Shown: one piece after another, positions 14,497 to 54,647 of the stretch | How the letters are laid out: every line of letters starts with the position of its first letter | Position numbering within the stretch: the first letter of the stretch is position 1 | DNA from: Rhizopus arrhizus | Lineage: Eukaryota > Mucoromycota > Mucoromycetes > Mucorales > Rhizopodaceae | Length of the DNA: 64,000 nt | Assembly: GCA_024220505.1 (NCBI GenBank) | Contig: JAKZZE010000025.1 | Coordinates: forward strand, 620,001 to 684,000 | Direction: 5' to 3' | The notes under the pieces: generated by a model | Told to the model about the DNA's origin: nothing | Database searches by the model: none | Seen by the model: the letters and a program-made list of their open reading frames with translations, nothing else | Made by a program: the position numbers and the translations under genes

Positions 14497-16052
14497 CTAT
14501 TTATGTTTCCAGGAAAAATGATGACAGCTGTAGTGTTCTTTTGGTCCATCTTGGGGTCCCACCGGCTTTGAGCAGACATAAAACGTCCTACCCAAATTTT
14601 TGCCCTTCTTTGTCACTGTCCGTTCCAGACAAGGTTCGTCGTGGCCTGAACATCGCGGTCGTTCGGGTGCTTGGAAGAGTGTGGACCAGGCAGTGACCTG
14701 TTTGTCTTTTATCTCTGGCAAATCATCCACCCCGTCTTTCGGCAGAGGGCTCCACGGATCCTCCTGTGACGTGTTCACTGGAGGGGCCACTGGGTTTTTC
14801 GTTGCAAAGAACGCATTGAGTCCCTTTTGCTTCTTGCTGATCTCACGACTGCTCTCTGTCCTGCTGGACTCCACCTGTTTTCTCTTCTTGTCGTCCAGTC
14901 CAGAGGATGGCGCGAGTCGATGGGTCGATTTAAAAAAATAACTCGAGAGTTTCTTTTGCTTGCTTGAGAACTCTGGAAAGTTGGTGGTCAAAAGAGGGGA
15001 CGTTGTGTCAGGCTGGGCGCATCGCATCTGGTCTGGCTCGATCGCAAAGTCAGCATAGACCGGACAGTGATCGGATCCGATGATCTGCGGCTGAATATCC
15101 GCATACACAAAACGAGGTTTGAGCCCATGCGAGGCCAAGACATAATCGATACGTGTGCCATAATTAGCCGGACGAGCATTGATGCGGGTATTCCAGCAGG
15201 TAAACATCCCCTTTCGATCCGGATGATAATACCGCGCCATGTCAACCATCGGCCCTTGAGGGCCGATCAGTCGGTCGACCCAGCGTCTGTGCGGTAGATC
15301 CTTAAAGTCCTTTAGGCCATGGAGCCTCATGCTCTCCTTTGGATCACAGTGATCGATCTCGTCATGGACCGCGTTCACGTCACCGACCAAAACGACCTGC
15401 TGCCCCTTGGCCAGGTAATCCTCGATCCTCTTTTGTACACAACCATAATAATCCATAATGAACTCGCCGCGTGCTTCGCTCGCAAAGTTTGGAAAATAAA
15501 TATTGATCAACACCAAGCATTCGAATTCCAAAATGATGCATCGTCCTTCACCGTCCAAGGCGTCGGCTGGTGTCCGGAGCGTCTCCAAAAAGTCGACGTC
15601 AAACGGTCGGTTCTGGAGGATGCCGGTGATGCCCTCCAAGCTCGCCTTGGGCACCCCGAGCTCGGATTTCACATACACAGACACACCCGAATAACCTAGC
15701 TTGGCTTTGGAGAATGAAAAATAGGCATCGTAGCCGGGAACAAGAGCCATGTCCCGTGTTATTTTCGATCGTTGGCATTTCACTTCTTGAAGACTGTTGT
15801 AAGGGTCAACAGGAGGAGTTGGGGCAAGGCAAAAAAAAAAAGGTTTAGTTGAATGTCAAAGGAGAGTTTTATTATGTCCACTTGCCATATGATATCAGCT
15901 TCAAGTGTATCAAGTAACACCTAACAAAAACCCTTTACTCTTTTTTGTTCAAATGAAACCATCTCCTTTACTTTGTACGATTTTGTTTCACACCAAGGAT
16001 GGTATTGTAATGTCGTGTTTAAACCATTCACATTCCAAGTTAAAATCCTCAT
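14497..16052 (-). CDS. APN2: AP endonuclease 2 (ExoIII family) with GRF zinc finger
   Basis: Class II AP endonuclease Apn2/APE2 of base-excision repair, nuclear. Exons 15972-16052, 15886-15920 and 14497-15793 give 470 residues. Active-site motifs: TWNVNG near the N-terminus, LQEVK with the metal-binding Glu, GDVNAVHDEID, and GSDHCPVYADF with the catalytic Asp-His. The C-terminus holds a GRF zinc finger (CSGHDEPC with YVCSKP). Two PCNA-box sequences lie in the linker: QKKLSSYF (14935-14958) and QKGLNAFF (14806-14829). The intron 15794-15885 begins with GC (gcaagt). Without it, the LEADIIC and LQEVK segments cannot be joined. The main exon is much richer in GC than its surroundings. The family call is very strong. 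Confidence 0.95.
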
Positions 16053-16362: not shown

Positions 16363-16877
16363 TGCTTCATGGTACTTGTAGTCCTTAGCGATAGACTCAC
16401 TCATTTTTAGAAGCTTGCTTTCATAGAGCTCTTTTACTAGTTTCCAAAAGGTGTTTCTTCTTGAAGACTACGATGTGAATTGGTTGGCAGAATCCAAATG
16501 AATTCTTTTCTGAACGCGTTTCACTAGGTAACACTAGCATGTATCGTTATGAGCCAAATAATGTCCAAAGAGTGTTTGTTATACCTATTCTCAAGTCACT
16601 CTCTTCAGTTGCTTTCAAAAATGTGATTGTTGAATTGTTATACGATTGTGAGTAGGTTTTTATTTATCTGCTGCATTAACTATATATATTGTATGCGATT
16701 CGTTTATCAGTACAGACGCTTGTCAAAATGGATAATGATGACAAGTATTGAAATAAATTGATAGAGATAAGAGACAGCTTTGTTACTGTGATGCATTTTC
16801 TCTGTCCATCTTCATTACCGCTGCCAATTAAAGTATTTGAAGCATCTCATAATACATGTTTGCATTCGCCTGATTTT
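16363..16877. other. intergenic, no gene seen
   Basis: An AT-rich spacer between the APN2 region and the first copy of the tandem duplication. No supported feature. Confidence 0.5.
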
Positions 16878-17008
16878 AAAACAAGTTTAGTCCATACTTC
16901 ATTTAGGGCAATAGAAAATATTTTAGTCAAGTGCTGTTAGATACAGCAGACTAGTAAAAACCATTCATATTTATTTATGTCAATAAACAAGCAATAGGGT
17001 ACAAGAAA

Positions 17009-17188
17009 TTAAGCATCCTTATTGCGACAACAAGTCCAGCAAAGACCAATCTGCTTGGAATACCAGCCTGAAGGACAGTCGAATTCTTTGTGAGAACACA
17101 TCTTCCAACAGATATCTCCGGCTTCAACGACATTAGAGTTAAGCAGGTAGGAACCAAGAGCAAGAAGAACAATGGAGGCAATTTTCAT
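17009..17188 (-). CDS. small secreted six-cysteine peptide, copy A
   Basis: A 59-residue intronless gene. Residues 1-23 form a signal peptide (hydrophobic core ASIVLLALGSYLL, likely cleaved after VEA). The predicted mature peptide of 36 residues has six cysteines at positions 27, 31, 38, 50, 53 and 54, giving C-x3-C-x6-C-x11-C-x2-CC, with the conserved pieces CPSGW and CWTCC. The even number and spacing suggest three disulfides in a defensin- or knottin-like fold; this is inference. Copy B at 18538-18717 has the same length and identical cysteine positions. A TATA-like box lies about 60 bp upstream. The frame was read directly from the sequence. The function is unknown; it could be antimicrobial, a signal, or an effector. 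Confidence 0.75.
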   Translation of the reverse strand: MKIASIVLLALGSYLLNSNVVEAGDICWKMCSHKEFDCPSGWYSKQIGLCWTCCRNKDA

Positions 17189-17247
17189 TTTTTGAAAGTT
17201 TCAGAAATACCAAATGTATAGACCAAGTCAAATGAAAAAAAAAAAAT

Positions 17248-17254
17248 ATTTATA
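17248..17254 (-). promoter_or_regulatory. TATA-like box of peptide gene A
   Basis: TATAAAT on the minus strand, 60 bp upstream of the start codon. The flanking DNA is conserved in copy B, where the same box lies 76 bp upstream. Confidence 0.5.
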
Positions 17255-18095
17255 TGAAATAGAAATTCATGCGCAGAATGTATTGTTACCCCCTGTCTGT
17301 TAGCCTTAAACATGATTGAAAAAGCCAAAAAGTAATTTTTACATGGACCTTGAGTGTGATGCGGATTGCATAATAAGAAGAAGTTCTACATGATGAGTGA
17401 GGGCTACAGACAGAGAATGAAGCCGCGTTGAATGACAAGAAATTGATCAGGCAACATGGTAGGAAGCTAAAGAAAATAAAAGTGAAAAAGGAATGATGGA
17501 GTCGGATCAAGAAATGAGATGACAAAGGTAGATGAACATGACTATTTTATTTTATAAATCATAAAAAGGCTCTCGATCAGACCCTTTACTTTTCACAGCA
17601 TTCCATGGCATATTAACCCTTGGAGTGGCTAGAGTCATGGTACAAAGTCAAACGAGAGCTGAGGTCAGTCAATCGAGATTGAGTTGATAGAGAACACTGG
17701 GACAGTTTTGAAGAACATGATGTAAGCAGGATGGATGATCAACACTGACAACTTGACTTGCACATCAAGATGACACAGACATGAGTCTTCTGTTTTTGAA
17801 TATGGCATGCTATACTGTGATGATAGTGATCAATAACCTGGGTGAATAAGACGTCTTGATGACTTGACAAACCCCCTAGATGGCAAGGGAGATCATGTAG
17901 CATGGTTCAGCTCTGAGAATGATGTGAAAGAAGCTTGTTTTGATGATTCTGATGATCTTGTTTGGCGATGATAGCCCTATTGGATCTAGTGTGTCAAATC
18001 ATGTATACATTCTTTCTATGCTTACAACTCGCCCATCTACCGAAAAAAAAAGGGGGGGGGAATTGTATTGAAATACTCCATGGGACAATAGTGTA

Positions 18096-18406
18096 TAAAA
18101 CAAAATTGGGTTCAGCAGCGACAGAATCAAAAGAATGTACATGCGCTATTCAACTTTTTGTTTAATCAGCTATTCATTTTAAAAAAGAAAGAGCAAATCA
18201 AGTTGGGCTCTAGTTTACATAATACCTTTCTGCACGGTTTTTATTTCTATTGATTTTGCAATAAGCTGTACTCAAGCATTAATATGCTTTTTTTTTTATT
18301 GAAAAGCTCCAAGTTAATACTTGATAGTAGCCAAAACATTTGGCTGATAATTATAGACTGTTCGTAGAAGAAAGATAGTTAAAGACTCTGTTCTTGATAG
18401 AATTCT
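18096..18406. other. unique spacer between duplicated copies
   Basis: 311 bp not shared between the two copies. It is AT-rich and no gene is seen. Confidence 0.6.
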
Positions 18407-18537
18407 AAAACAAGTTCAGTTCATACTTCATTTAGGACAATAGAAAATATTTTAGTCAAGTGCTGTTAGATACAGCAGACTAGTAAAAACCATTCATATT
18501 TATTTATGTCAATAAACAAGCAACATGGTACAAGAAA

Positions 18538-18717
18538 TTAAGTAGACGGAGGGGGACAACAAGTCCAGCAATAACCATTTTGCTGGGCATGCCAGCCTGA
18601 AGGACATGGAACTTGGCTGGGATAACATATCCCCCAACAGGCACCTTGGGCTTCAGCGACATTAGCGTTAAGCAGGTAGGAACCAAGAGCAAAAAGAACA
18701 ATGGAGACAAATTTCAT
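18538..18717 (-). CDS. small secreted six-cysteine peptide, copy B
   Basis: The paralogue of the gene at 17009-17188: also 59 residues and intronless, with cysteines at exactly the same positions (27, 31, 38, 50, 53, 54) and the shared CPSGW and CWTCC pieces. The signal peptide differs at 5 of 23 residues and the mature part at 21 of 36. The tail after the last cysteines is PPPST here and RNKDA in copy A. Nearly every base change alters the amino acid; I see one synonymous codon change in the whole gene (CAG/CAA for the shared Gln 46). Codons for the cysteines and for PSGW and WTCC are unchanged. This suggests diversifying selection on the exposed residues of a disulfide-bonded secreted peptide. 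Confidence 0.75.
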   Translation of the reverse strand: MKFVSIVLFALGSYLLNANVAEAQGACWGICYPSQVPCPSGWHAQQNGYCWTCCPPPST

Positions 18718-18792
18718 TTTTTGAGAGTTTCAGAAAATACCAAATGTATAGACCAAGTGAATTGAAAAAAAAAAGAAGAAAAAAATGAACAT

Positions 18793-18799
18793 ATTTATA
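18793..18799 (-). promoter_or_regulatory. TATA-like box of peptide gene B
   Basis: TATAAAT on the minus strand, 76 bp before the start codon of copy B. It matches the box of copy A within conserved upstream DNA. Confidence 0.5.
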
Positions 18800-19654
18800 T
18801 GAAATAGAAATTCATGCGCAGGATGTATTGTTACCCCCGTCTGTTAGCCTTAAACATGGTTGAAAAAGCCAAAAAGTAATTTTTACATGGACCTTGAATG
18901 GGATGCGGGTTGCATAATAAGAAGAAGTTCTACATGATGAGCGAGGGTTCATCAGATGGTGATCAGAGAGGGCTACAGACAGAGAATGAAGCCGCGTTGA
19001 ATGACAAGAAATTGATCAAGCAGCATGGTAGGAAGCTAAAGAAAATAGGAGTGAAAAAGGAATGATGGAGTCGGATCAAGAAATGAGATGACAAAGGTAG
19101 ATGAACATGACTATTTTATAAATCGTAAAAAGGCTCTCGATCAGACCCTTTACTTTTCACAGCATTCCATGGCATATTAACCCTTGGAGTGGCTAGAGTC
19201 ATGGTACAAAGTCAAACGAGAGCTGAGGTCAGTCGATCGAGATTGAGTTAATAGAGAACACTGGGACAGTTTTGAAGAACATGTTGTAAGCAGGATGGAT
19301 GATCCACATTGACAACTTGACTTGCACATCAAGATGACACAGACATGAGCCTTCTGTTTTTGAATATGACATGCTATACTGTGATGATAGTGATCAATAA
19401 CCTGGGTGAATAAGACGTCTTGATGACTTGACAAACCCCCTAGATGGCAAGGGAGATCATGTAGCATGGTTCAGCTCTGAGAATGATGTGAAAGAAGCTT
19501 GTTTTGATGACTCTGATGATCTTGTTTGGCGATGATAGCCTATTGGATCTAGTGTGTCAAATCATGTATACATTCTTTCTATGCTTACAACTCACCCATC
19601 TACTGAAAAAAAAAGGGGGAATTGTATTGAAATACTCCATGGGACAATAGTGTA

Positions 19655-20212
19655 CTTTTTTCACTTCTCATCCCGTGGTTACAAGACAAATGATGAAATG
19701 AATCCTATAAAGATCATAGACATCCTCTCTTGATAAAGTGACAAGTGTATTGATAACCAAAGGGGATCTTTTCTTTAGTAAGACGAGTGTGTGGAGATCA
19801 GGGTTGCATGAATTTCAGTGACGTTTCACTTGTGTTACCTTTCTCCTTGAATATGACGTAAGTCTGTGTGGCATTGAATATACCATGTGAACGTTTTACT
19901 ATAAAAAAAAAGCTTATTATTTTATCAAGCGACATTGACACCGAGGAAAGGTATAAAAATAAAAATTAAAAAAAAAATAGAAGAGAGAGAGAGAGAAAAG
20001 TGAAGATAGACTGTATTTTTTTTTTCTTTTTCATTTAGTGAAAAGTGAATCTAATCATTTAAAGGTAACATTCGTTATCTTTAAATAAATAGATTTGATT
20101 GGTGAAATAAAAATATATATTACTTTACTGATAAGAAACCATTGAATTGTTTTATTGGATAAAAAGATCCAAAAGTGAAATCATTTACTTTTTTTTTTCT
20201 TTTTTCTTTTTT
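19655..20212. other. upstream region of kinase gene
   Basis: AT-rich DNA with a short GA repeat (about 19985-19997) and a T-rich leader before the kinase start. No other feature is seen. Confidence 0.5.
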
Positions 20213-21231
20213 ATGACTCAAAGAAAATTGAATAAAGAGAGTTCACTTGTGATTAATACAGACCAATTTCATAATAAAAATAATAATAATAATCCATTCC
20301 CATCCCCTTCTACTTCACCTGTCTGGAGAAGTAAATGTCAATTGACCAAATCACCCACAACGCAACCCACCTGGGATTATTCTATTCAAAGCCCTGCTGC
20401 TTCCTTTCTGTCCAGTTTTGGATCATCACTGGTGGATAGTGGAGAAGAAGAAGAAGGAGATGAAATTGATGATTATGTGCTGGATAAAGTCATTGGTTAT
20501 GGTGGATTCTCTGTGATCAGAAAAGGATTTCGTATTTCGGATGGAAAGAAAGTGGCTATAAAAGTCATCAAGAGACAAGAAGACGAGGTGAGATTAGAAA
20601 GAGAGATCAAGTTGTGGAAGTCACTGAATCATCCCAACATTGTCTGTTTGGAAAAAGTACTAGAGACAGACCATGCGACATTTATCGTCTGTGATTATTG
20701 TGAGAATGGCAGTCTACTGGATTATGTGAAACAGAGAAAGAGAACAGAGGATGAGATACGAAAGGTGTTTGGTGAATTATGTGATGCACTAGGTTATTTA
20801 CATCAAGAAGCAAGATTGGTTCACAAGGATTTAAAGTTGGAAAACGTATTGTTGGATGAAAACAACCGGGTCAAGTTGTGTGATTTCGGTTTGGCCATCT
20901 GTCAACAACCGATTGCTTCTTGCAGTGATATCGCGGGTGGTTCACTGGCTTATGCTGCACCAGAACAAATTCAATCTGCTCAAGCGATCTCTTGTCCGTT
21001 GACTGACATTTGGTCTCTGGGTGTCCTTCTCTATTCTCTCGTCTGTCGTAAATTACCTTTCAGGATGATTATGATCTTCGCTTACAACAAAAGATTCTTT
21101 TGGGTGAATATGACATGCCATCCGATATTTCTCTTGAATTACAAGATTTGATTAAACACTGTCTTATGCCTGATCCTCATCAACGTTTTAATATTCAACA
21201 AGTACTACAATCTTCTTGGTTGAATCCATAA
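20213..21231 (+). CDS. Ser/Thr protein kinase, CAMK-like, with apparent frameshift
   Basis: A protein kinase with a Ser/Thr/Asn-rich N-terminus (about 90 residues) and a kinase domain. Motifs: glycine loop GYGGFSVIRKG, ATP lysine in VAIKVIK, catalytic loop VHKDLKLENVLL (HKD in place of the usual HRD), DFGLA, AAPEQ and DIWSLGVLLYSL. After KLPF, around 21058-21061, the reading frame shifts. The rest of subdomain XI (DDYDLRLQQKILLGEY to HQRFNIQQVLQSSWL, stop 21229-21231) continues in another frame. One extra T in the TTT run would restore a normal PFQDDYD junction, so this is either a homopolymer sequencing error or a real inactivating change. The next ATG upstream (20147) would add an unlikely poly-Phe segment and was not chosen. 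Confidence 0.82.
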
Positions 21232-29387: not shown

Positions 29388-32300
29388 ATGACAGAAGTAC
29401 CTATTATATGTAGAGTTCAAGCACTTTACCCTTTCAAATCAAATGATCCTTCTTCACTTTGTTTTGAACAAGATGACTATATTGACGTTTTAACGAAATT
29501 ACCTTCTGGTTGGTGGGATGGACTGTAATCATGAATCACTTTTTTTTATACAAAATATTAAACCTTTTTTCTACTAGGTGTAATGGTATGAGAGGCTGGT
29601 TTCCAAGTAATTATGTAAAAGTTGTTGAAGAAGTGGAACAAATATTAGAGCCTGACTTTAAGAGAAGAAATACGGAATACAGATTGAGTTTATTAAGCAA
29701 TCATACACCTGAGTGGATAATACAAAAGACAGAAGACGGTGTAGATACATATTACTACAATACCATCACTGGAGAAATGAGAATTGATCCACCAAATGAA
29801 GAAGGAGAACAAGTCTGTCACAGCGAGAACAGTGGAAATCGTTGGTCTGATCAAAGTACACTGACATCTTCAAACATAGATAGAGAAGTAAATCCAGAAA
29901 TAGGTTTTGTTCATCAAGTCACTAACAAAATAAATATAGAGCCAATACCTTCCTGCTGCTTTAACTAAAACCCTGCAAACAAATAGCAGTTACAATCAAG
30001 AAACAGCATCAGTACCATCCAATCATTTTGTAAATATTCCCTTCTTTCTCCTTTTTCTTTACTCATCTTGTTCTTGTTAGATATCCACTCTTGATCATTC
30101 CCAAACTATACCTTCTCGGCCCTTTTCGACAATCAACGAACCAATGACTTGGCCAAAATTGTTTCAGCATATCGCACTCACCATCCATCAACTCAGTGCG
30201 TCCGTAAAATCCGAACAACGTCAGACATACAACATGAATGCTATCTATATCGTGAACGTGATTCGACACATGCTTGTTTCGTCCAACACAATCGATAAAG
30301 AATCTTCTCCGATTCACCAACATACCAATCTGCGTATTCATCATCGTGCCATGATGGCCAGTCTATCCAAACTGGTCTTGTCTGCACGGAGCGCACATGA
30401 TGATACTCGTATCCTGTCCGAGTGCAACGAGCTGTTGAGTACCGTAAAGCACTTTGTCTCTACCTGTCAAGAACTTTTGATACCTCTTGTACCTGTCGAT
30501 CCACAATTTGTTCAGACCAAGGAAGAAACAGAACCTTCGACAGTAGTTCACAGCAATCGGTACAGTTTGCAATTAAACCTCGCAGAGAATTTGGAAACCA
30601 TGGGCTTATCCATTCAAGATTCTGCAGGGACCATCATGACTTATGTTAACAATTGTTCGGGAGATGATAAAAATTCACTTGTCGTCTTGCTCTTTACTCA
30701 TTTCCGTAATCTCTCCAACCAGACCGGTCTGTTCTTGGCTTATTTGGATGAGACGGATTTTAGCAGCGTGCTGGAACAGTCCGAGATGAGGGACCTGAAG
30801 CAAGGCAAGCAGGCGTTGGCAGATGCCCTCGGGATTCTTTTCATTAAGCTACAGGCCATGACAAGTGAGCATATTGAGGATTTTAATGCGTGTTTGAAGG
30901 CGACGCGAGAAGCTGCGGCTGCTTTGTTTGTGCCCATCGAATTGATCTGTGCGAGTGTGTTGCATTTAGCAAAGAAGAATAGAAGTAACAGTAATGCTTC
31001 TAGTCTTCAAATGAATAATAAAAAGATGGTCTCAATCGAAGAGAAAAAGGAGTCTACCATTGCAGAAGAGATAGAAGAGGAGGAAGAGAAGAAGGCAGAA
31101 GAAAACAAAGAGAGAATAGTAAAAGAGCAAGCGGAAGAAAAAGAAGCTAAAGATGAATCAGTCATACCATTAGAAAGACATCAGTCTGAAATCGTACAAT
31201 CCTCCACTGAAAGGCCTTCCATCGTCCAACGATCTCAAACAACACCCTCTTCAGATAAAATCAAGAAATTCTTTGGCGACGATGCACCTATTACAGAAAC
31301 AGCAAGTACGAAACCTGCAGTCAGTGAGCGTCCTGACTTTTTACAATACGATTATGGACCCAACGATATTGTGTTCAACATGGAAGGTCATGTTAAGGGA
31401 GGTACATTACCAGCCCTGGTGGAAAGGTTGACGATGCATGACTATTTTGATATGAACTTCATCAACACGTTTTTATTGACCTATCGATCTTTTTGTGCCT
31501 CCTCGGATCTGTTGGATCTGTTAGAGGCAAGGTATAACCTAAAATGTCCAGAGGGGTTGACAGAGGAAGAAGCGACGATTTGGGAAGAAAAGAAATTGAA
31601 GTTGGTCCGGTTGCGTGTGTTTAACGTATTGAAGAATTGGCTTGAACTTTACTATAATGAAGATGACAGTGTTTTGCTTGATCGACTGATGGAATTCATT
31701 GAAACACACATCAGAACCACTTTAAAGTTCTCCAATGGACAGCTGGAATCCTTGATTCAAAAGAGAAAAGAAGGTGTCGCTGTAGAAAATGTGGGACTCA
31801 AAAAGATGGTCTTGACCTTGCCTGATCCTCCTGAGCCTATCTTTCCCAAGAATCGAAAGCGATTCAAGTTGCTGGAAATTGATATATTGGAAATGGCGAG
31901 ACAGTTGACTATCATGGACTTTAAGCTGTACAGCTCAATTCGTCCTATTGAGTGTTTAGATAAAGCATGGTCAAGAGATGATGATTCAGTTGCGGTCAAC
32001 ATTAGAGCGTCAATTGAATACTGTAATCAAGTCACTTCTTGGGTTTCTGATGTTATCTTGAGTCAGCAAGACATAAAAAAGAGAAGTGTAATGATCAAGT
32101 ATTGGGTGCAAGTAGCTGAGGTATATGAAACATACTATTTATTTTATTTGTTTGCTTATAAAACATTGTATCATAGAAATGTAGAATGTTGAACAACTTC
32201 AATACATGTATGGCTATCCTATCTGCTTTTGATAATAGTTCTGTAGGTCGGTTGAAGCGTACTTGGGAAGCAGTAGGAGCAAGAACAAATCAAATATTAC

Positions 32301-48237: not shown

Positions 48238-50615
48238 ATGGGTAAATCAAACCAAGAATTAAAATACAAGAGACTTAAGGTTGGTCATGCTTGTTATGTC
48301 TGTCGAAGTAAAAAAATAAAGGTAATTCACTTGCTTATTTCAATCTTTTGTTCATTCCTTCTTTAATCTATAGTGTGATGGACTCAGGCCTTGTATGCAG
48401 GTAATACCAACAGATTTTATATGAGAGTTTTATCTAACTATTCAATTATTAGTGTAAAGGTACAGAAAAGCTGAGCATTTTTTTTTTCTTGGTAAAAAAA
48501 ACTAATATCAATCTTATAGCTCGCGGTAGAAACTGTATATCATCAAAAACAGAATCCTTGTCTAAAGAATCATCAGAAACCAGTAAAGATCATCTCGAGA
48601 ATAACAACAGCAGCAGCAGCTGCAGTAGTAGTAGTTGTAGTGAATCAGACGATGACTCTATTCTCTTTTCAAGGCCAAGAAAATCTTTTGTAAATAACTC
48701 AGAAAGTACCCTTCCATTTTGTGAATCCCGCACTAGCCATACTGTTACGTCAATAGCAACAAGTGTAAAAGAAAAAAAGGAGTTCCCTGCCGAAGTTTCC
48801 TCTAAATTCCCTATGTTTGGTAACTTTGTTCGTTGGACGACTGAGCCTCCTTTACCAACACATTATTCTCACCCAATCGAGATGCCTGCGGCTGATGTAC
48901 AGATGCACATGATTGACCTATTCTTTCAAACATATTATGAAACTATGCCTCTTATTCCTAAAACATTGTTCTATGAACAACTTCACGTCAAGGGACCATT
49001 AATAACCCCTCTGCTGTTGAATGCCATCTATTGCACTGTCAGTGGATTTACAACTCAAACTGATGTCCCAAAACCCAGTGTCTTTTTTAATCGTGCCAAA
49101 AAGCTAGTAGATGACTTTCTTGACACGCCCCGGGTGAGTACTGTGATCGCCCTCTGTCTTTTATCCTTATATGAACCAAGCCCTACTAGAGGAAAGACAT
49201 CTTCAGGTACTCAGCATTGTAGAGCATGGATTTATGGTGGCATGGCCTTTCGTATGTGTCTTGAACTCGGACTGAATATTGATAATCCAGAGACAAGAAA
49301 AATGCTAGGTCCTCAAGATATCGAACTTCGTCGGAGAGCCTTTTGGACGTGCTACGTTTTTGATAAGATTCAAAGTCAAGAATGGGAAAGAGCTTGGATC
49401 TTGCCATCTTCATTAGCCAATGTCTCTTTACCCACCGCTCTGTCTAACGATGATGCAAACGAAAGGCAGATTATAGCGGCTTTTGCTCAAACTATAAAGC
49501 TCTTTGTGATTGCTGAAGAGGGTCTTCAGATTCGCTCGCTCTTTGCTATTAATGGCAGAAATGATACAAGCGTCGTTCACAGTCAACTTGAACTGCATTA
49601 TTCAAGAATCTTGAATTGGAAGCAAGAATTATTAAATGATACCGCTTTTGATTCTTACAAACTCCTTGAAAGCACCGCAACCGAACCTTATTTGGTCTAC
49701 AGTCATCTCATCTTTTATTACATGCTGATAGAAACGTTGATCTTGTTACCACAAACTGCAGAGAGAATATCCAAACAACGTGGCTATGCAGCGGAGCTTA
49801 TAAAACATGCTGATATTATTTGCCTCCAGCCTTCCAAAACTGTTCCGTATGAGATGATTGTTCATACTGTTGGTACTTCGCTTCGGGCCTATCTAGATGA
49901 TGATAGCAAAAAGACACTTATGCCATCCGAATTGATTAGCAAATGCCTCAAGATATTTTCTATCATACAACAGCGTGCTTCAATCCCAAAATTTTCTGAA
50001 ATTGTCCGACATGTACACAGTTTATATCAACATGCAAGAAAGACTCAGCAAACGGACCTTGTCGAGAAACGATCAAAAGGGCCCGAACAGGATCCAATGG
50101 ACCCCATCTATTCTTTCTCACCCTCTCTGGAAGAAAAAGGTCAGCAAGAGATTATAGCTCAGCACTCAATTGAAAACGATTTTCTTTCAACCAATGAATA
50201 TTCTTGTCATACAAACAACAATAGACTGCGTGTCCAAACTGAGATGCAGTATCAAAAGCAACCATGGCAAGATATGGTAGATAAGCACGAACTAATGACA
50301 CCTTCAACGCCAGAAGACCCACTACAGCAGTTTAGTAATTCGCCTGTTACCGATCCAATTGAGCTGACGTGGCCATTACCTTATTTATCTCAGTCGGCTT
50401 TTTCTCCAGATGTAAATACCTTAACCTGCCAAGAGCAGCCCTATCTGACTCAGTTCTCAAATCTAAGCCCGTCCAGTTATATGGCTTCACCCTATGCTCA
50501 TCCCACTCCTTACCTGAATGAATCATATCACTATCTTGATACTGAATACATAGACCATTTTTCAACCCTGTCAAGCATTCCAACGACAGCTCAGCAATTG
50601 TATTATATAAACTAA
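48238..50615 (+). CDS. Zn2Cys6 fungal transcription factor with 7-nt microexon
   Basis: A fungal-specific regulator. Exons 48238-48321, 48374-48400, 48453-48459 and 48520-50615 give 737 residues. The zinc cluster is split over four exons: ACYVCRSKKIK, then CDGLRPCMQ, then CK (7 nt), then ARGRNCISSK. Only this joining supplies all six cysteines with normal spacing. After a Ser-rich stretch, the fungal-specific TF domain follows (MIDLFFQTYYETMPLIPK, AWIYGGMAFRMCLELGLN, RRRAFWTCYVFDK), with a Pro/Ser/Gln-rich tail. It shares domain order with the factor at 41590-43953. A simple ORF reading starting near 48489 would miss the whole DNA-binding domain. The regulatory target is unknown. Confidence 0.9.
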
Positions 50616-52779: not shown

Positions 52780-53549
52780 GTTGCAATAAACAAAAGAAAA
52801 AGGAGTTCCTTTCGTGTGCTTTTTTTTTTTTCCTTTTCTTATGAAAGTAATCTTTGATACCTCCTTTTACTTTATAATGTCATTAAACGACTTTTAGGGA
52901 GTTAAAGTAGTAGGGCAAAAATAAAGCTGGTAGTTGTATGCACTGTATAGAGTTCTCCTGAATATGAATAGCATTGTATCAATATTACAATGATAGATTG
53001 TTCATTAGTTGTCTACTCAATCACATTCATGAATTGATCCAAGTTTATCTAGGTCGTACCTTGTCTGACAGAGGATCTTCAAAAGGCGAATCAAATCATA
53101 TGCAGTATGCTTTATCTTTACATCTATTTATTGTTCTCGTAGCAATTGTACTTTTTTTTTGCTACCCCTCAATGTAGTAGGCAGCATCCTCCTATGGTTA
53201 CACGCAAGGCACATTTCACGATATTAAATCATCATCAAACGAGCTTTGAAACCTCAACAAAAAATTAAATCAAATTGCTTGTTAAATTCACATCGCATTA
53301 GTTTTGTGTAAATCTCAAAACCCCCTGTAATCTGTTGATTATATTTTATTGTGAATTCGAGCTTAAAATGGAAATCCACAAGTTTTGTATGATGGAATTT
53401 GAACTGTGTTGCGCTCTTCTTATTCACCCCAAGAAACACCCCTTTCACCTTCACTGTCTGTTCGGACCGGGTCTGTCAATCGGAGGTTGAAGTAGCAGAA
53501 GCCTCAATTTTTTTTTCTCTTGTCCTTTCAAGAGTTCCTCTTTGCAGCA
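52780..53549. other. divergent promoter region
   Basis: 770 bp between the divergent AIG1-like and eIF3i genes. It is AT-rich with a T-run near 52821-52831. A CT-rich tract with possible 5' leader splice signals lies just before the eIF3i start. No gene is seen. Confidence 0.5.
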
Positions 53550-54647
53550 ATGAGACCCATTTTACTTCAAGGCCACACTCGTGCATTAACACAGATCAAA
53601 TACAACCGAGAAGGTGATTTGCTGTTTACAGTCTCCAAAGACAAAGTTGCCAATGTTTGGTACTCTCATAATGGAGAACGTCTAGGTACCTATACAGGTC
53701 ACCAAGGAAGTGTTTGGACTATTGATGTGAATGGTATTTTCAAAAATGTACATACGATGCGTGAAACTAAACCTGTTTATTTAACATTAGCTGAATCTAC
53801 ATTACTTGTTACTGGTTCAGCAGATAACTCCTGTAAACTTTGGGAAGTTCAAACGGGTCGATGTTTAAAGACTTGGGAATTCAAGACGGCTGTGAAGCGT
53901 GTTGAGTTTAGTGAAGACGGTTCTATGGTTTTATGCGTAACCGAAGAGCGTATGGGATATTCAGGAACCGTTACAGTGTACCCTGTTAATAGCGACATCA
54001 ATGGTGCCCGTATGTATTTTTTTATATGGATAATAAATCCTTGTACTTATACACGCTCTATAGAATCCAATTCACCTATTGTTGTCATCACGTACAACGG
54101 AGGATCTAAAGCTGTTGTAGCTGGATGGACTTACTTGGACAAATATATTGTTACCGGTCATGAAGATGGTACTATCTGTCAGTGGGACTGGAAGGCTAAC
54201 GAAAAGATCAAGTCTATTAAAGCACACGAGAGCGTTTTATCTGATATGCAATCTAGCAACGATCGCACATATTTTATTACTTCTTCAAAAGACAAAAGCG
54301 CAAAGATCATTGATTCAATGACATTGGACATAAAGAAGACCTATACTGCCGACACACCTCTGAACTCTGCATCTATTACACCCAAGCATCAGGAATTCGT
54401 CATTATCGGTGGTGGTCAAGATGCAATGAATGTCACAACAACTTCTGCTAGACAGGGTAAATTCGAAAGTAGATTCTATCACAAGATTTTAGAAGAGGAG
54501 GTCGGTCGTGTCAGAGGTCATTTTGGTCCTATCAATACGATTGCTGTCCACCCCGATGGAACGAGTTATTCTAGTGGTGGTGAAGATGGTTATGTTCGTG
54601 TACATCATTTTGATCCTGATTATTATACTTTCAAGCTTGAAATTTAG
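53550..54647 (+). CDS. TIF34: translation initiation factor eIF3 subunit i
   Basis: A WD40 subunit of eIF3 that joins the b-g-i module on the 40S ribosome. Exons 53550-53733, 53791-54009 and 54064-54647 give 328 residues, the usual size. The start [19 protein letters not shown] is the family N-terminus. WD blocks include [48 protein letters not shown] and [15 protein letters not shown]. Both introns (57 and 54 nt) are multiples of three and contain no in-frame stop. The unspliced frame therefore stays open and would insert 19 and 18 residues that break WD repeats. I treat them as introns because they have GT-AG ends and interrupt conserved blocks. The stop is 20 bp from the convergent MBIP stop. 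Confidence 0.95.

What the first reader, a model, noticed from the sequence alone, without database searches (positions are those of the whole stretch)
17009..18717. Tandem secreted six-cysteine peptides with almost only amino-acid-changing substitutions
Read directly: two 59-codon minus-strand genes (17009-17188 and 18538-18717) align without gaps. I count 38 base differences over 177 positions. In the signal peptide all five changes are replacements. In the mature part 21 of 36 residues differ, and only one codon change is synonymous (CAG/CAA). The codons for all six cysteines, PSGW and WTCC show no change at all. The sampled upstream DNA differs by only a few percent. Such an excess of replacements in a disulfide-framed secreted peptide is typical of arms-race or recognition peptides (antimicrobial, signalling or effector families). 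I know no described family with the spacing C-x3-C-x6-C-x11-C-x2-CC.
Basis: partly seen in the sequence, partly recalled or inferred. Interest (0 to 1): 0.92.

Follow-up and report, generated by a model that had tools for sequence, protein, structure and literature searches.

The report
Fast-changing secreted peptides in a mould
Two neighbouring genes in a mould, most likely a Rhizopus, encode tiny secreted peptides of an unnamed family found in many fungi; the parts between their fixed cysteines change unusually fast, as expected if they must keep matching a changing target.

Summary
Both 59-codon genes exist, differ at 38 of 177 bases, and 26 of 27 changed codons are replacements. They lie in a tandem duplication whose flanks differ by about 2.8% (27 of 952 bases). 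dN/dS of the pair is 4.6 by counting and 5.6 by likelihood (p 0.009). A site model on six paralogues strongly favours positive selection (likelihood ratio 53-63; maximum 11.8 in 82 null simulations) and names ten sites, all between or just after the cysteines. A second cluster shows the pattern more weakly (p 0.012).

New: this is no orphan. The genome holds 12 clear and 3 weak members. Profile searches find relatives in Aspergillus, Fusarium, Neurospora, Podospora, Macrophomina, Amanita and others; no Pfam match reached its cut-off among those I could see. A Rhizopus sister copy matches Aspergillus at 25 of 30 core positions, the twins each other at 15 of 30. Six of the ten sites are nearly fixed in Aspergillus.

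Function is inferred: a secreted disulfide-framed binding peptide, possibly inhibitor-like. Kinship with potato inhibitor II was tested and not supported.

The parts
17009..17188 (-). gene A (WA, P0001): 59-codon secreted six-cysteine peptide, intronless
   Evidence: translation; matched by 13 other places in the genome
17120..17188 (-). gene A signal peptide, residues 1-23 (cleavage after VEA inferred by eye, no predictor run)
   Evidence: hydrophobic N-terminus; relatives align here
17012..17119 (-). gene A mature peptide, 36 residues, C-x3-C-x6-C-x11-C-x2-CC
   Evidence: AlphaFold2 mean pLDDT 91.5, three strands
18538..18717 (-). gene B (WB, P0002): 59-codon twin
   Evidence: translation; 92% identical unnamed database protein P0003
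18649..18717 (-). gene B signal peptide, residues 1-23 (inferred)
18541..18648 (-). gene B mature peptide, 36 residues
16873..18056 (.). duplicated unit, copy A
   Evidence: 1112 of 1226 aligned columns identical to copy B; the 5' part occurs only twice in the genome by DNA search
18402..19619 (.). duplicated unit, copy B
   Evidence: the 3' flank of gene B also matches that of paralogue L002 over 455 bases, gene A's only over 127, so B probably keeps the older site
17249..17254 (-). TATAAA 66 bases before the ATG of gene A (TATA box by recalled consensus)
   Evidence: 13 of 14 paralogues have TATA[AT]A within 150 bases upstream; AT-rich DNA, chance not controlled
18794..18799 (-). TATAAA 82 bases before the ATG of gene B
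16970..16975 (-). AATAAA after gene A (poly-A signal by recalled consensus)
   Evidence: 10 of 14 paralogues have AATAAA within 120 bases of the stop
18499..18504 (-). AATAAA after gene B

Best explanation
The two genes are recent tandem copies of a secreted peptide from an undescribed fungal family: a signal peptide, then a roughly 30-36-residue domain held by six invariant cysteines. SHOWN: the cysteine frame and several core residues are fixed while about a fifth of the codons diversify by positive selection after duplication. INFERRED: the domain is a rigid disulfide-framed small beta-sheet that works outside the cell by binding a protein partner through the residues between the cysteines. 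In most fungi the partner is stable and the face conserved; in this Rhizopus lineage duplicates are retargeted to varied foreign partners. The most likely action is inhibitor- or antagonist-like binding of foreign extracellular proteins (proteases or receptors of competitors or hosts) rather than membrane lysis.
For: Positive selection: M2a against M1a likelihood ratio 53.1 (coding-sequence tree), 63.4 (flank topology) and 62.5 (star tree), omega about 11-12.5 at about 21% of 59 codons; M8 against M8a agrees; null simulation maximum 11.84 in 82 replicates. The same ten sites (gene A residues 29, 30, 34, 36, 37, 40, 49, 55, 56, 57) result on all three trees. Gene B branch omega 7.5, p 0.014 against 1. 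Second cluster: L005-L008 omega 6.9, p 0.016; trio likelihood ratio 8.9, p 0.012. Frame: 78 of 89 rows fit C-x3-C-x6-C-x9..17-C-x2-CC. Compact fold: pLDDT 91.5. Family breadth: 66 of 71 hits at E <= 1e-3. Core conserved across phyla. At site 29, R, K or L in 25 of 30 non-Rhizopus rows, residues known (recalled) to be common at the contact position of serine-protease inhibitors.
Against: No partner, expression or activity data. 23 of 36 pairs have omega under 1, and L005-L007 has 0.24. Recombination among paralogues can inflate site-model tests and was not modelled. Only 6 of 15 loci went into the site model. No structural match of weight. Site 29 holds K, G, K, D, E, S in the six paralogues, not a protease-inhibitor-like set. 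Conserved tryptophans might serve carbohydrate or membrane binding instead.
Confidence: 0.45

Rival explanations
1. Antimicrobial or antifungal peptides used against competing microbes, acting on membranes or cell walls, with diversification following changing competitors.
For: Small, secreted, disulfide-rich and rapidly diversifying; present in many soil and plant-associated fungi.
Against: Net charge (K+R-D-E) ranges from -7 to +3 among 21 members, 0 to +1 in the twins, unlike typical cationic lytic peptides (recalled). The core is conserved across phyla.
Confidence: 0.2
2. Host-directed effector peptides (plant, insect or other host) of a Rhizopus that lives on plant material.
For: Resembles small cysteine-rich effector families under diversifying selection; some Fusarium relatives carry the deposited name 'pathogenicity protein'.
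Against: That name is an annotation, not a test. The family is present in saprotrophs such as Neurospora and in mushrooms. No paper found for the locus tags or motifs searched.
Confidence: 0.15
3. Self/non-self or developmental signalling peptides whose variants mark individuals or lineages.
For: Duplicated, secreted, variable between otherwise fixed residues; multi-copy in clusters.
Against: No receptor-like gene seen beside the pair among the ten large ORFs scanned; copies are scattered over nine contigs.
Confidence: 0.1
4. Mosaic origin: gene conversion kept the flanks alike while the mature segment of gene B came from an older, diverged paralogue, so the pair's divergence is not recent selection.
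For: Gene A is closer to L002 (78% of residues) than to gene B; divergence is confined to the coding part, 31% in the mature segment against 2.8% in flanks.
Against: An old segment should carry synonymous change as well: only 2.5 synonymous against 30.5 replacement changes in the mature part. Import from a paralogue with dS around 0.13-0.2 is not excluded, but would only move the selection onto another branch; site models give the same ten sites on three topologies.
Confidence: 0.1

Closest known systems
Potato inhibitor II (Pot II, Pfam PF02428, MEROPS I20 recalled)
   Same: C-x3-C-x7/8-C-P...C-x2-CC in solved chains against C-x3-C-x6-C-P...C-x2-CC here. In Pot II the one positively selected site is P1, residue 5, the second residue of the C-x3-C loop (PMC2259423, abstract and passages, with the chain); here the matching residue 29 is one of ten selected sites. 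Both have a three-stranded sheet and tandem-domain forms.
   Different: Six cysteines instead of eight. No PF02428 match over the cut-off in this genome. Profile comparison probability 2-3%, score 13.2 against 11.1 +/- 2.3 for shuffles that keep the cysteines. Selection spread over ten sites, not one.
Small cysteine-rich secreted effector families under diversifying selection (for example PcF/SCR74 of Phytophthora, seen as a listing only)
   Same: Small, secreted, cysteine-framed, multi-copy, replacement-rich.
   Different: Conserved core across several fungal phyla, and no sequence match was sought or found to a named effector.
Alpha-defensins
   Same: About 32-36 residues, three-stranded sheet with a CC pair; appear in the Foldseek list with TM about 0.3-0.45.
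   Different: Spacing differs, E-values 5.3-7.8 only, no cationic charge.
Fungal cellulose-binding domain CBM1 (PF00734)
   Same: One Rhizopus delemar relative, RO3G_05749, is named CBM1 domain-containing in UniRef; similar size.
   Different: PF00734 was not among the 14 families matched at E <= 10 by any of 49 members scanned, of which P0009 was one.

Membership tests
Potato inhibitor II (PF02428) | match to the PF02428 profile over its cut-off | tested here: not met
   Own genome: one match of 14.4 bits (cut-off 22.3) on contig C26, at no family locus. PF02428 is not among the 14 families listed for the 49 members of A5.
Potato inhibitor II (PF02428) | eight cysteines per repeat | tested here: not met
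   Six invariant cysteines across 49 rows; solved chains show eight.
Potato inhibitor II (PF02428) | profile similarity beyond the cysteines | tested here: not met
   Probability 2.1 and 2.9%; 60 cysteine-keeping shuffles reach up to 17.4 against the real 13.2. The Pot II profile had only three rows.
Potato inhibitor II (PF02428) | P1 residue in C-x3-C under positive selection | tested here: met
   Residue 29, posterior 1.00; by analogy only.
Potato inhibitor II (PF02428) | same fold | tested here: inconclusive
   Not listed by Foldseek or VIA, which does not exclude it for so small a domain.
Potato inhibitor II (PF02428) | inhibits serine proteases | not testable with these tools
   needs an assay
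Diversifying small secreted cysteine-rich peptide (general kind) | excess of replacement change with omega over 1 | tested here: met
Diversifying small secreted cysteine-rich peptide (general kind) | conserved even number of cysteines | tested here: met
   six invariant cysteine columns in 27 rows and in 49 rows
Diversifying small secreted cysteine-rich peptide (general kind) | secretion | tested here: inconclusive
   Hydrophobic N-terminus visible; no signal-peptide predictor or secretome data available.
Diversifying small secreted cysteine-rich peptide (general kind) | expression during interaction | not testable with these tools
   no transcript data held
Alpha-defensins | cysteine spacing C-x-C-x4-C-x9-C-x9-CC (recalled) | tested here: not met
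   C-x3-C-x6-C-x11-C-x2-CC
Alpha-defensins | defensin fold | tested here: inconclusive
   Foldseek E 5.3-7.8, TM 0.3-0.45
CBM1 (PF00734) | match to the profile | tested here: not met
   0 of 49 members at E <= 10

The most novel reading that the evidence does not exclude
A fungus-wide, so far unnamed family of secreted six-cysteine mini-domains acts as exchangeable protein-binding or inhibitor heads. Most fungi keep one conserved specificity, while in Rhizopus clustered duplicates evolve new specificities at about ten surface positions, in the manner of venom peptides or plant defence inhibitors.
Probability: 0.3. Interest if true: 0.82.

Novelty: new variant of a known kind. Interest (0 to 1): 0.62.

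Why it matters
It gives a named-by-motif fungal family (ICWRVCFPEKPxCPxGWxxKxxGxCWTCC) that no Pfam model I could see covers and that no paper found by my searches mentions. It offers a clean test case: the same scaffold is conserved across phyla and diversifying in one genus. The ten sites form a ready list for finding the binding face and partner. Small size and a rigid frame make structure and assay work easy. The deep conservation also raises a plain question: what extracellular partner do moulds, crusts and mushrooms share?

Tried and rejected

Horizontal transfer between Rhizopus and Aspergillus: one clade of 21 Rhizopus rows is not rejected (p-AU 0.31), nor is a clade of L005, L007 and five Aspergillus rows (p-AU 0.90); 33 columns cannot decide. 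Relatives of the core form in 84,980 prokaryote species and in viral contigs: 70 and 87 pattern matches, none confirmed. Plasmids: none.

An overlapping 68-codon frame starting at TTG is open on the same strand in both copies (16975-17181 and 18504-18710); set aside because the fungal relatives match the reported frame.

Papers: PMC2259423, abstract and passages by term; PMC8977774 and PMC6158513, passages by term only; all others seen as search listings. Searches on the topic.

Rows left out: the site model used 6 of 15 loci (the five of C18 plus C10), 59 codons, leaving out the C11 loci (dS near saturation against C18), the more diverged single copies, an indel column and tails present in fewer than five rows. 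The residue table used 30 non-Rhizopus rows with an 11-residue fourth loop; rows with other loop lengths and P0014, P0015, P0023, P0026 were left out, and some of the 30 have no named source. The 89 rows count the twins twice (as P0001/P0002 and as WA/WB). The simulation was planned for 120 replicates and stopped by time at 82.

Full report
What is there. Two minus-strand, intronless ORFs of 59 codons lie at 17009-17188 (gene A) and 18538-18717 (gene B). They differ at 38 of 177 bases; 27 codons differ and 26 of these change the residue. Each lies in a unit of about 1.2 kb (16873-18056 and 18402-19619; 1112 of 1226 columns identical). Its upstream part differs at 25 of 852 bases and its first 100 downstream bases at 2. 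The upstream unit has only these two copies in the genome by DNA search.

Where it comes from. The window is contig C18, 620001-684000, of an unnamed 50.3-Mb genome in 41 contigs. The closest named proteins are of Rhizopus delemar RA 99-880. None of the five named proteins is identical to a copy here (best 41-56 identical residues of 59-64 for three, 49 of 55 and 37 of 57 for the others). So this is most likely a Rhizopus other than that strain, an inference.

Selection in the pair. By counting, 2.5 synonymous changes fall on 38.5 sites and 35.5 replacements on 138.5 (dS 0.068, dN 0.314, ratio 4.6; Fisher p 0.003). In the mature part the numbers are 2.5 of 20.7 and 30.5 of 87.3 (ratio 3.6, Fisher p 0.024). 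Likelihood gives omega 5.6, p 0.009. The mature replacement rate (0.35 per site) is about twelve times the flank divergence. Polarised with L002, L003 and L006, 14 residue changes fall on gene B, 3 on gene A and 9 are ambiguous. The gene B branch has omega 7.5 (p 0.014 against 1), the gene A branch 2.0 (p 0.45).

Selection in the family. Twelve loci match at E <= 1.6e-6 and three weakly (E 0.003, 0.019; 0.008). One of the weak ones, on C34, shows no in-frame ATG. Five lie on C18 and four on C11. Among nine core paralogues, 13 of 36 pairs have a ratio over 1 and only A-B has Fisher p under 0.05. All 18 pairs between the C11 and C18/C10 groups have ratios of 0.09-0.41 with dS from 0.93 to saturation, and L005-L007 has 0.24. 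So long-term constraint and episodic diversification coexist. A site model on the five C18 copies plus C10 (59 codons) gives likelihood ratios of 53.1, 63.4 and 62.5 on three topologies. The maximum in 82 simulations under the null was 11.8, with a 95% point of 4.9. The likelihood code is my own script, not PAML. The same ten sites exceed posterior 0.95 each time: gene A residues 29 and 30 (between C1 and C2), 34, 36 and 37 (C2-C3), 40 and 49 (C3-C4), 55-57 (after CC). No signal-peptide site reaches 0.05. In the C11 trio the likelihood ratio is 8.9, p 0.012; L005-L008 has omega 6.9, p 0.016, 17 mismatches in a 749-column upstream match, but 10 in only 86 columns downstream.

Relatives elsewhere. 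One sequence alone found one unnamed protein. The profile of the paralogues found 13 proteins, all at E <= 3.1e-10, and a second profile 71, of which 66 at E <= 1e-3. Named sources include thirteen or so Aspergillus species, Fusarium, Neonectria, Neurospora, Podospora, Macrophomina, Lasiodiplodia, Lyophyllum, Macrolepiota and Amanita; many rows have no name. 78 of 89 rows fit C-x3-C-x6-C-x9..17-C-x2-CC; the fourth loop is 11 residues in 55 and 15 in 16. The other 11 rows include frames that lose the match at GW or KFG followed by V, which I read as unspliced introns. One Macrolepiota protein holds two domains. Core identities: L005 to Aspergillus arachidicola 25 of 30, R. delemar P0005 to Amanita 25 of 30, A to B 15 of 30.

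Contrast of sites. In 11 Aspergillus rows, residues 34, 36, 37, 49 and 55 carry one residue in 9-11 rows and residue 29 is R or K in all 11. Residues 30, 40, 56 and 57 vary there too. So six of the ten diversifying sites are nearly fixed in Aspergillus.

Structure. The mature gene A peptide is predicted with mean pLDDT 91.5 (pTM 0.58) and strands 2-4, 20-24, 27-33. Both domains of the Macrolepiota protein show three strands, with lower overall confidence (pLDDT 73.6). No solved fold matches well.

Potato inhibitor II. The spacing and the place of the selected residue resemble that family, whose P1 residue is its positively selected site (PMC2259423, abstract and passages). But cysteine number, Pfam match and profile similarity fail. 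I therefore do not file it there and keep only 'may work like an inhibitor' as a hypothesis.

How it most likely works. Shown: replacement-driven diversification within a fixed frame, a conserved core in many fungi. Inferred: secretion, folding by three disulfides, binding of a protein partner through the variable positions, and retargeting after duplication. Unknown: partner, expression, activity. Rivals are antimicrobial action, host-directed effector, signalling, and a mosaic origin of gene B's mature part, each given with its refuting test.

Novelty. Small secreted cysteine-rich peptides under diversifying selection are a known kind. New here are the family itself, not covered by a Pfam match over cut-off in the 30 member proteins for which cut-offs were shown and not mentioned in papers found by my tag and motif searches, and the contrast between its conserved core in other fungi and fast change in this genome.

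Noticed in passing
G000 C11:802393-836869 (L008, L007, L005, L015): A second cluster of four members, three with near-identical upstream DNA, one of which (L008) has changed fast while the other two have not.
   Followed up: yes
P0012, P0013 against L005 and L007: Aspergillus section Flavi proteins share 25 of 30 core residues with a Rhizopus copy but have a different leader and probable introns; deep conservation or transfer could not be told apart.
   Followed up: partly
P0030, P0070, P0072: A two-domain Macrolepiota protein and two fragments that hint at genes with several domains in a row.
   Followed up: partly
Fusarium, Neurospora and Podospora relatives (for example P0057, P0049, P0067): A conserved pro-region (AMPWS...EITLRI) precedes the domain and an acidic tail follows it.
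   Followed up: no
16975-17181 and 18504-18710, minus strand: A second overlapping 68-codon frame with a TTG start is open in both copies.
   Followed up: no
14497-15783 (-), 20147-21151 (+), 30144-32192 (+), 48489-50615 (+), 53520-54647 (+): Neighbouring ORFs match nuclease with GRF zinc finger, protein kinase, RasGEF, fungal transcription factor and eIF3i; ordinary housekeeping or regulatory genes.
   Followed up: no
G000 C26:397367-397471: A lone sub-threshold match to PF02428 (14.4 bits, E 3.1), probably chance.
   Followed up: no
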